A stretch of DNA of 51,872 nucleotides from an uncultured Granulosicoccaceae bacterium (GTDB lineage: Bacteria; Pseudomonadota; Gammaproteobacteria; Granulosicoccales; Granulosicoccaceae): contig CALFCE010000154.1 in assembly GCA_937951215.1 (NCBI GenBank), positions 1 to 51,872 on the forward strand, in the 5' to 3' direction. Shown here in pieces: positions 32,260 to 34,551 of the stretch. The position numbers and the translations under genes were made by a program. The first letter of the stretch is position 1; each line of letters begins with the position of its first letter. The notes below the pieces were generated by a model. It searched no databases and had not been told where the DNA came from. It saw nothing but the letters and a program-made list of their open reading frames with translations.

Positions 32260-32303
32260 TTTTATTTCCATATTTCTATAAAAATAGAAATATGGAAATA
32301 AAA
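32260..32303. promoter_or_regulatory. 20-bp perfect inverted repeat with 4-nt spacer overlapping the arsR-like start codon; candidate operator
   Basis: ttttatttccatatttctat (32260-32279) - aaaa - atagaaatatggaaataaaa (32284-32303); the ATG is 32292-32294. Confidence 0.8.
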
Positions 32304-32636
32304 TCAAAGCCACACTCAACAGCCAAATCCCTCAACGTGACTGAGGCTGCCACCGCTTTTTCTGCGCTGGGCTCCGAGCAGCGACTGGAAATCTTGAGCG
32401 CTCTGGTACGAGCCGGACCGACCGGACTGTCCATGGGAACTCTCGGAGAAAGGTCCGGCGTCACCGGATCGACGCTGACCCATCATTTAAAAATATTGCA
32501 CGCAGCTGGCTTGTGCGATCAAACCAAACAAGGAAGATCAATTGTCTGTGCGGCTGTTGCTTATGAAATGGTTGGAGGCCTTTCCCATTATCTATTGCAA
32601 CACTGCTGTGCCGACGCCGAGGAGATGAACCAATGA
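32292..32636 (+). CDS. ArsR-family transcriptional regulator
   Basis: TAFSALGSEQRLEILSALVRAGPTGLSMGTLGERSGVTGSTLTHHLKILHAAGLCDQTKQGRSIVCAAV. Confidence 0.92.
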   Translation: MEIKSKPHSTAKSLNVTEAATAFSALGSEQRLEILSALVRAGPTGLSMGTLGERSGVTGSTLTHHLKILHAAGLCDQTKQGRSIVCAAVAYEMVGGLSHYLLQHCCADAEEMNQ

Positions 32637-33691
32637 CGAGCCTGAACTTGACCGGCTCCTTGTTGTGGCCACATCTCAAATCAGCGCTGAATCGATTGGA
32701 TCGAGTTTGGGTTTTGTTCGGCGCAGTGTTATTGGTTATGGCCATAGCTGTACCATCTGACTGGCCCGGTATTGTTTCGTCGATTTTTCGAAATCTCTCG
32801 CACACTGCGATCTTTATTATTATTGCCGTCTTGCTGATCGGTTTTCTACGTGCTTCTGGCGCTGAAGCCACTGTTGCCAAGGCGTTCCAGGGTCGTGAAA
32901 CTCGCATGATCTTCCTGGCGGCTTTGGTGGGTGGGTTGGCGCCTTTTTGTTCGTGTGAAGTGATCCCGTTTATCGCCGCTTTACTGGCCATGGGTACACC
33001 ACTCTCCGCAGTTATGGCGTTCTGGTTGTCATCACCGATTATGGACCCTCCGATGTTTGTGATTACTGCCAGTGCGCTCGGGCTGGACTTTGCCATCGCT
33101 AAAACAATGGCTGCCGTGGCTTTCGGTTTGTTTGGAGGATTTGTCACCCTGTTGCTGGCAAGAACAGCTTATTTCGCACAACCGTTGCGTGAAAAGCTGC
33201 AGTCGGGATGCGGAGCTTGCTGTGGGCCTGCTGGCACCAGTCCGTTTGAGGGGCAAGTGATCTGGAAATTCTGGAGAGTACCTGACAGGCTGGCATTGTT
33301 TTATACCACTATCGCCAGCAACGGCCTGTTTCTTCTCAAGTGGATGGCTCTTGCCTATTTGCTTGAAGCACTGATGATTCGCTATGTACCGGCGCAATGG
33401 ATAAGTGCTGCATTAGGTGGAAGCGGATTTCAGCCAATAGCACTGGGCACCCTGCTGGGTGGGCCGGCCTATCTGAACGGGTATGCTGCGGTGCCACTGG
33501 TCAGCGGTATGTTGGAGCAGGGTATGAGCCAGGGTGCCGCGATGTCGTTTGTATTGGCGGGAAGTGTTACCTGTATCCCGGCTGCAATAGCGGTTTGGGC
33601 ACTGGTAAAGCCACGAGTGTTTCTGGCTTATGTGTTTCTTGCCCTCAGTGGATCGTTTGTTGCCGGATCGATCTGGGCTGCTTATCAATAG
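32633..33691 (+). CDS. Permease, ArsP/UPF0718 (DUF318)-like
   Basis: Multi-TM; PFCSCEVIPFIAALLAMGTPLSAVMAFWLSSPIMDPPMFVIT, internal GCGACCG Cys cluster; overlaps the arsR-type gene by 4 nt. Confidence 0.85.
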   Translation: MTSLNLTGSLLWPHLKSALNRLDRVWVLFGAVLLVMAIAVPSDWPGIVSSIFRNLSHTAIFIIIAVLLIGFLRASGAEATVAKAFQGRETRMIFLAALVGGLAPFCSCEVIPFIAALLAMGTPLSAVMAFWLSSPIMDPPMFVITASALGLDFAIAKTMAAVAFGLFGGFVTLLLARTAYFAQPLREKLQSGCGACCGPAGTSPFEGQVIWKFWRVPDRLALFYTTIASNGLFLLKWMALAYLLEALMIRYVPAQWISAALGGSGFQPIALGTLLGGPAYLNGYAAVPLVSGMLEQGMSQGAAMSFVLAGSVTCIPAAIAVWALVKPRVFLAYVFLALSGSFVAGSIWAAYQ

Positions 33692-33757
33692 TGGCATTAG
33701 CATTGCGTGACACACAATCGCCTCAAGTTGGATATCGCCTGGAATTCTAGTGGTTTG

Positions 33758-33791
33758 AACACCAGCCGTGCATTGCTGCACGGCTGGTGTT
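33758..33791. terminator. Perfect 15-bp stem-loop downstream of the permease gene
   Basis: aacaccagccgtgca-ttgc-tgcacggctggtgtt; no poly-T, so terminator or processing role is inferred. Confidence 0.5.
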
Positions 33792-33799
33792 AATGCATG

Positions 33800-33843
33800 T
33801 TCCGACTCTGAAAAATCCAGGATGGATTTATTCAGAGGTAGAT
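33800..33843. repeat. 44-bp direct repeat copy 1, containing an imperfect hairpin (33806-33837)
   Basis: ttccgactctgaaaaatccaggatggatttattcagaggtagat; identical to 33922-33965. Confidence 0.95.
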
Positions 33844-33921
33844 ATTTGGCACAAGGATGTGCCAACAAATAGAGTGTGTTTTCACTCTATTTGGAGGAAA
33901 TTGTAAACCACGCTTTTCAAT

Positions 33922-33965
33922 TTCCGACTCTGAAAAATCCAGGATGGATTTATTCAGAGGTAGAT
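33922..33965. repeat. 44-bp direct repeat copy 2, abutting the VOC gene stop codon
   Basis: Same 44-mer as 33800-33843, offset 122 bp. Confidence 0.95.
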
Positions 33966-34333
33966 TAAGTCATGTGATAAAAGCACAACTTGTTGCCATC
34001 AGGGTCCTTGACATAAGCCCCGTAAAAGAAATCAGCGCGCTGGCCCGGTGCGCCTTCATCGCTAGCTCCCAATTCCATCGCCTTGTCATAAAGCTCTTTC
34101 GCGCCATCAGTCGAGCCACCGGGTATGGCAACCATTTGGCCGTTTCCACAGCTTTGTGCGCCACCATCAGCTGGTGTACAAATGGCAAGCATGGCACCAC
34201 CGGCCTCAGTCCCATAGAATTTTATTCGATCCAGTGACATCATTTGCTTGCCATCCACCAGTGCCAATAATGAGTCATAGAATGCTACGGCCTTGTCGAG
34301 ATTTCGGGTTCCAATTGTTGCGTATCCGATCAT
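33965..34333 (-). CDS. VOC family protein (glyoxalase/bleomycin-resistance-like)
   Basis: MIGYATIGTRNLDKAVAFYDSLLALVDGKQM...FYGAYVKDPDGNKLCFYHMT. Confidence 0.9.
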   Translation of the reverse strand: MIGYATIGTRNLDKAVAFYDSLLALVDGKQMMSLDRIKFYGTEAGGAMLAICTPADGGAQSCGNGQMVAIPGGSTDGAKELYDKAMELGASDEGAPGQRADFFYGAYVKDPDGNKLCFYHMT

Positions 34334-34426
34334 GATATTTCCTTTGTTGAGTTAATTTAACGGTTGGTGCAAAAGCCAACTCAGTCGTTTGATAACGCAC
34401 TTATTGGCTCAATTCAAAATTCAATA

Positions 34427-34442
34427 TCTATCGATAGATAGA
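34427..34442. promoter_or_regulatory. Palindromic operator-like box tctatc-gata-gataga upstream of the VOC gene
   Basis: 6-bp arms with 4-bp spacer; also sits in a perfect 16-bp palindrome tatctatcgatagata (34425-34440). Confidence 0.55.
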
Positions 34443-34551
34443 TTTTTTGAGCAAAAGGACAAGTAACGATCATCCTCTTGGTGACTTGGTTGATTTTAAG
34501 ATGGGGCCGTGACCAGTTCGGCTATGATGCCGACTGTGACACGACTATCTT

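What the first reader, a model, noticed from the sequence alone, without database searches (positions are those of the whole stretch)
33758..33965. Dense array of five to six hairpins with a 44-bp direct repeat between convergent permease and VOC genes
In about 210 bp I read: a 15-bp perfect stem (33758-33791); the 44-bp repeat hairpin copy 1 (33806-33837); ttggcaca-agga-tgtgccaa (33846-33865); caaatagagtg-tgtttt-cactctatttg (33866-33893); ggaaattg...caatttcc (33896-33925), which uses the edge of repeat copy 2; and repeat hairpin copy 2 (33928-33959). Nearly every base is in a potential stem. This far exceeds a simple bidirectional terminator and looks like a REP/MITE-type compound element or a structured RNA. 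Copy 2 abuts the VOC gene stop codon.
Basis: seen in the sequence. Interest (0 to 1): 0.6.

Follow-up and report, generated by a model that had tools for sequence, protein, structure and literature searches.

The report
Five-hairpin mobile element with CsrA-like loops
The dense hairpin block is a decayed, partly duplicated copy of a short "hitch-hiking" transposable element found in many proteobacteria; its hairpins are kept folded by paired mutations and two of them carry loops that look like landing sites for the global regulator CsrA, a combination that does not appear in the RNA catalogue or papers searched here.

Summary
In detail: six hairpins and a perfect 44-bp direct repeat (spacing 122) fill 33758-33965, far beyond chance (folding z -10.6 and -14.1). 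Five belong to one element; the 15-bp stem at 33758-33791 does not. Related copies occur in the same genome, in 75 of 369 sampled genomes of the class and in a second class, up to 132 per chromosome. The complete element is ~153 bp: five hairpins (H1-H5), terminal inverted repeats GGAASSTCTGA and a 4-bp YTAR target duplication. IS5-family elements with matching ends sit in some carrier genomes, so it is an IS5-type MITE; nearest known is MITEPsy1. The window copy lacks H1 and intact ends and is 1.4 units of a tandem array seen elsewhere. New: the stems covary strongly (26 of 42 pairs with two-sided changes; controls 10-15), while the H2 and H5 loops stay fixed as CANGGANG / CAGGANG, the CsrA/RsmE recognition pattern. 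Copies show no orientation or replication-strand bias, and G-U versus A-C deviations do not clearly favour RNA over DNA, so CsrA binding is a motivated inference, not shown. Rfam, plasmid, phage and viral searches found nothing.

The parts
33800..33843 (+). 44-bp repeat copy 1: last bases of an H4 3' arm (TTCC) plus hairpin H5 (stem 33806-33837, loop CAGGATG 33818-33824); left-over first unit of the tandem array
   Evidence: same truncation point as array L204
33846..33865 (+). hairpin H2, TTGGCACAAGGATGTGCCAA; loop CAAGGATG (33852-33859) matches CANGGANG, and ACAAGGAUGU matches the last ten positions of the CsrA SELEX consensus
   Evidence: family alignment
33866..33893 (+). hairpin H3, 11-bp stem, variable in sequence but always paired in relatives
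33896..33925 (+). hairpin H4 with the conserved inner CCACGC loop
33922..33965 (+). 44-bp repeat copy 2: end of H4 plus hairpin H5 (stem 33928-33959, loop CAGGATG 33940-33946) and a degraded right end (GGTAGAT instead of GGTTCC)
33815..33965 (+). stretch matched by covariance model R1 (117.5 bits, E 1.7e-31 in the genome)
33758..33791 (.). 15-bp perfect stem, not part of the element; possibly a transcript end of the permease gene, although it has no T run

Best explanation
Shown: the block is a remnant of a widespread non-autonomous IS5-type transposable element (MITE) of about 153 bp made of five consecutive hairpins. Intact relatives end in GGAASSTCTGA inverted repeats and are flanked by a duplicated YTAR tetranucleotide; IS5-family elements in some of the same genomes have matching ends. 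Inferred: an IS5-family transposase moves the element in trans by acting on these ends. The window copy has lost H1 and both intact ends and is 1.4 units of a tandem array of the H2-H3-H4-H5 unit, so it is probably no longer mobile; such arrays most likely arise by recombination between the inner end-copy in H1 and the end in H5, since the unit is the element minus H1. Also inferred: the hairpins act as a folded nucleic acid that serves the element's spread rather than the host locus, and because the H2 and H5 loops keep the CsrA/RsmA recognition pattern, a sense transcript (here only by read-through from the permease gene) would bind CsrA.
For: Copies in own genome and across the class and phylum. 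Of 144 copies with both flanks, 95 have identical 4-bp flanks, 81 of them YTAR. IS with the same type of ends and DUF772/DDE transposase in G172, G138, G128, IS5 family by NCBIfam. Tandem arrays of the same unit in G066. Covariation: 26 of 42 pairs with two-sided changes versus 14.6 in shuffles and 10-15 slid. Loops: GGA in 56 of 59 H2 and 58 of 59 H5, CANGGANG in 50 of 59 H2. csrA in 53 of 54 carriers. CsrA/RsmE consensus from PMC4347634 and PMC6849547.
Against: No IS5-type DUF772 transposase was found in the window's own (85% complete) genome, nor in several other carriers, so the helper there is missing, lost or of another subtype. The window copy itself has no intact TIR or target duplication. 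For the CsrA part: no transcript data, no orientation bias, G-U deviations only mildly exceed A-C (26 versus 16), and csrA presence is the norm for these bacteria.
Confidence: 0.82

Rival explanations
1. The stems stay perfect only because palindromes correct themselves during replication (template switching between arms); the hairpins do nothing and the element is an ordinary MITE.
For: G-U and A-C deviations are both rare and nearly balanced (26 versus 16), as a strand-symmetric DNA process would give; no orientation or replication-strand bias; even H3, with a variable loop, stays paired.
Against: Loops of H2 and H5 stay fixed while stems drift; a one-base 3' bulge recurs in H5 and positions 1 and 5 of the H4 loop covary, which self-correction would not preserve.
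Confidence: 0.35
2. A stand-alone CsrB/RsmZ-type sponge RNA gene, or tandem arrays domesticated as one.
For: Repeated GGA-loop hairpins; tandem arrays with several GGA hairpins in G066; a weak RsmV-like match at H2 (12.4 bits, far below cut-off).
Against: No Rfam match at cut-off; only a chance-level promoter-like site and no terminator-like site here; dispersed copies with TIR and target duplications.
Confidence: 0.06
3. A bidirectional transcription terminator between two convergent genes.
For: Position between convergent genes; stable stems.
Against: No terminator-like site; relatives sit in all gene arrangements equally (30 convergent, 37 divergent, 36 and 35 co-directional).
Confidence: 0.05
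4. A REP/BIME cluster moved by a RAYT-type enzyme.
For: Clustered palindromes; a GTAG follows H5 in the two window copies.
Against: GTAG is absent from relatives; 4-bp target duplications and TIRs of a DDE transposase; no replication-strand bias (59 of 114).
Confidence: 0.02

Closest known systems
MITEPsy1 of Pseudomonas syringae (PMC3189936; 100 nt, ISPsy2/IS5-related)
   Same: Nearly the same ends (GGAAGGTCTGAAAAAGCC), 4-bp duplication of CTAG or YTAA, no genes, IS5-type helper; shown to transpose in vivo.
   Different: 100 nt versus about 153; no multi-hairpin structure, covariation or GGA loops are described in that paper; its sequence was not compared here.
CsrB/CsrC, RsmX/Y/Z RNAs
   Same: GGA in hairpin loops with the CANGGANG pattern.
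   Different: No Rfam match; two GGA hairpins per unit instead of many; dispersed mobile copies; no gene-like promoter or terminator found.
TwoAYGGAY candidate RNA (listed in PMC2864571)
   Same: From memory: two hairpins with AYGGAY loops.
   Different: No match of its Rfam model to the window or relatives at E<=1; no mobile-element link known to me.
REP/BIME palindromes
   Same: Short dispersed palindromes, often clustered.
   Different: Mobilised by RAYT enzymes without TIR/TSD of this type; here IS5-type ends and duplications.

Membership tests
IS5-type MITE | short, no coding capacity, many dispersed copies | tested here: met
   about 153 bp of hairpins; 132, 101, 32 and 7 matches in four genomes
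IS5-type MITE | terminal inverted repeats | tested here: met
   GGAASSTCTGA at both ends in relatives; degraded in the window copy
IS5-type MITE | 4-bp target duplication, YTAR | tested here: met
   81 of 144 copies YTAR identical both sides, 95 identical 4-mers; not present around the window copy
IS5-type MITE | autonomous relative with the same ends | tested here: met
   IS5-family IS in G172, G138, G128; none found in the window's genome with PF05598
IS5-type MITE | mobility in trans | not testable with these tools
   shown only for the related MITEPsy1 (PMC3189936)
CsrB/Rsm sponge RNA | match to a curated family | tested here: not met
   no Rfam match at cut-off
CsrB/Rsm sponge RNA | GGA in hairpin loops | tested here: met
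   H2 and H5
CsrB/Rsm sponge RNA | own promoter and terminator | tested here: not met
   promoter-like sites at chance level, 0 terminators
CsrB/Rsm sponge RNA | CsrA binding | not testable with these tools
   needs a binding assay
REP/BIME (RAYT) | conserved GTAG next to the palindrome in relatives | tested here: not met
   present only beside H5 in the window copies
Intrinsic terminator | GC-rich stem followed by a T run | tested here: not met
   0 found in 33500-34500 on either strand

The most novel reading that the evidence does not exclude
A transposable CsrA decoy: an IS5-mobilised element that has kept two CsrA/RsmA-binding hairpins across two proteobacterial classes, so that transcribed copies and tandem arrays titrate a global regulator to the benefit of the element or its host.
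Probability: 0.27. Interest if true: 0.82.

Novelty: new variant of a known kind. Interest (0 to 1): 0.6.

Why it matters
If the loops bind CsrA, this would be a mobile element that spreads decoy sites for a global post-transcriptional regulator, in over a hundred copies in some chromosomes. Even without that, it is a widely distributed MITE family whose folded structure, not just its ends, is conserved, which raises the question why a transposon that should need only its ends keeps five hairpins with fixed loops. It is also easily mistaken for a structured RNA gene in covariation screens.

Tried and rejected
Known Rfam family: none. Terminator: no T run. Single-copy chance structure: excluded by copies and covariation. 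Presence in plasmids, phages or viral contigs: none found (the viral scan used one exact pattern). RNA 3'-UTR role read from orientation: no bias (ORF calling was crude). Single-strand transposition read from replication-strand bias: none in G172 (59 of 114). RNA versus DNA selection from G-U versus A-C: inconclusive (26 versus 16; H2 alone 9 versus 1). Empty-site comparison at the window locus: VOC relatives align only from the element edge onward and the permease match is in a different genome, so no empty site could be read. A genome contigs pattern scan was too strict and returned one named MAG, so carriers are mostly unnamed. A counting script first mis-assigned the GGA in H5 and was corrected.

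Full report
Observation. On either strand the region folds far better than dinucleotide-preserving shuffles (z -10.6 and -14.1, none of 200 shuffles as stable). It lies between an ArsP_1 permease gene and a convergent glyoxalase/VOC gene.

It is a repeat. In the same assembly (4.44 Mb, 414 contigs) DNA searches find related copies on C339, C157 and C170, partial ones at the ends of contigs C40, C7 and C384, and shorter pieces on C81, C397 and C409; a covariance model finds 7 matches. The 15-bp stem at 33758-33791 is found nowhere else in the genome and is not part of the element.

The complete element. Aligning 21 copies from many families gives a ~153-bp element: H1 GGAASCTCTGA..TCAGAGSTTCC; H2 with a GGA loop; H3 with a variable stem and loop; H4 with AAAA-YCRCRY-TTTT; H5 with TCCAGGATGGA at its tip and a right end ..TCAGASSTTCC. 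The outer ends are inverted repeats. Of 144 copies with both flanks, 95 have identical 4-bp flanks and 81 of these are YTAR (TTAA, TTAG, CTAG, CTAA). In carrier genomes G172, G138 and G128, insertion sequences with DUF772-type transposases have the same type of end (GGAACTTCTGCAAAAGT, GGAAGCTCTGCAAAAGTC, GGAGCCTCTGAACAA). The one read in full, L087:1292-2451, is flanked by TTAA on both sides, and its transposase is IS5 family (NF033581, 353 bits). This is the anatomy of an IS5-type MITE. MITEPsy1 of P. syringae has nearly the same ends (GGAAGGTCTGAAAAAGCC) and targets (CTAG or YTAA, 4-bp duplication) and has been seen to transpose (PMC3189936). No such transposase was found in the window's own, incomplete genome.

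Distribution. With covariance model R1, 75 of 369 sampled genomes of the class have it, as do many genomes of a second class of the phylum (46 of 299 in a phylum sample). Counts are 132 in G172 (3.2 Mb), 101 in G066 (arrays included), 32 in G425 and 7 here. A DNA search of relatives found no significant copy in the two same-genus genomes, so the distribution is patchy. There was no hit in plasmid or phage records, nor in IMG/VR with one exact pattern.

The window copy. It reads (end of H4)-H5-H2-H3-H4-H5, with no H1 and no intact end at either side. Tandem arrays of this unit exist in G066: 116 bp x 4.6 in L071 and 124 bp x 3.4 in L204, the latter also beginning inside the 3' arm of H4. The unit equals the element without H1, and H1's inner arm and H5's outer arm are copies of the same end, so unequal recombination between them is the simplest origin (inference). 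The window copy is therefore a tandem remnant that is probably immobile.

Conservation of the fold. On the 21-sequence alignment, 26 of 42 pairs show changes on both sides that keep the pair, against 14.6 +/- 2.0 in shuffles and 10-15 when partners are slid; 95.7% of cells pair versus 37-51% when slid. In 59 copies less than about 90% identical to each other, the loops of H2 and H5 keep GGA in 56 and 58 cases. H2 reads CANGGANG in 50, with all four bases at both N positions; H5 reads CAGGANG in 35 and CANGGANG in 14. In the 27-copy set less than about 80% identical, H1, H3 and H4 loops hold 0, 1 and 0 GGA, and random loops of the same composition would give about 3 GGA in H2, against 25 seen. 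The CsrA SELEX consensus is RUACARGGAUGU with GGA in a hairpin loop (PMC4347634, PMC3856055), and the RsmE consensus is A/UCANGGANGU/A (PMC6849547). H2 of the window, GCACAAGGAUGUGC, contains ACARGGAUGU exactly. csrA is in 53 of 54 carriers examined, 50 of 50 of the near-complete ones, which is expected for these bacteria and so only a consistency check.

What argues for caution. Copies are inserted without bias relative to neighbouring genes (36 sense, 35 antisense, 30 convergent, 37 divergent) or replication direction (59 of 114). So if selection keeps the fold, it acts on the element's spread, not on each insertion. Deviations from Watson-Crick are rare and G-U only mildly exceeds A-C (26 versus 16), so selection on RNA is not separated from DNA-level palindrome upkeep; H2 alone is 9 versus 1. 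Against pure self-correction of palindromes stand the fixed loops, a recurrent one-base bulge in H5, and a covarying loop pair in H4.

Mechanism, step by step. Shown: family, ends, target duplications, helper-type IS in some carriers, tandem arrays, covariation, loop conservation. Inferred: mobilisation in trans; recombination origin of the arrays; immobility of the window copy; CsrA binding of sense transcripts (about 0.4 as a biochemical fact, about 0.27 as the reason for conservation). In this window the element probably does little beyond forming a structured junction between two convergent genes.

Verdict. The element is a new variant of a known kind. The surprising part is a mobile element that preserves CsrA-like hairpins across two classes.

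Noticed in passing
window 33758-33791: A 15-bp perfect stem unrelated to the element, single-copy in the genome; perhaps the permease transcript end, but without a T run.
   Followed up: partly
G000 C397:6191-6233 (L029) and C409:5383-5425 (L028): Single-hairpin elements of about 43 bp, GGAACCTCTGATTTATTCCCGGATGGAATAAATCAGAGGTTCC, the C397 one flanked by TTAG on both sides: possibly minimal mobile forms of the same family.
   Followed up: partly
L078:563-649 (G138): A three-hairpin version (H1-H2-H5) with TTAA on both sides.
   Followed up: no
L082:1934-2091 and L090:1084-1292 (G172): The IS5-family element lies directly against a five-hairpin element, sharing its YTAR flank as a target.
   Followed up: partly
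L087:1292-2451 (G172): An IS5-family element inserted within what looks like a CRISPR array (repeat GTGTTCCCCGCGCACGCGGGGATGAACCG).
   Followed up: no
L063:1392-1558, L052:1495-1660, L110:773-978: Copies with an extra palindrome inserted inside the loop of H4, so that hairpins can be gained as modules.
   Followed up: no
L204:1489-1504: An inverted copy of the H2 hairpin directly before a tandem array.
   Followed up: no
window 32292-33691: An ArsR/HTH_20-type regulator gene overlapping an ArsP_1 permease gene: a likely small arsenic-type resistance operon upstream of the element.
   Followed up: partly
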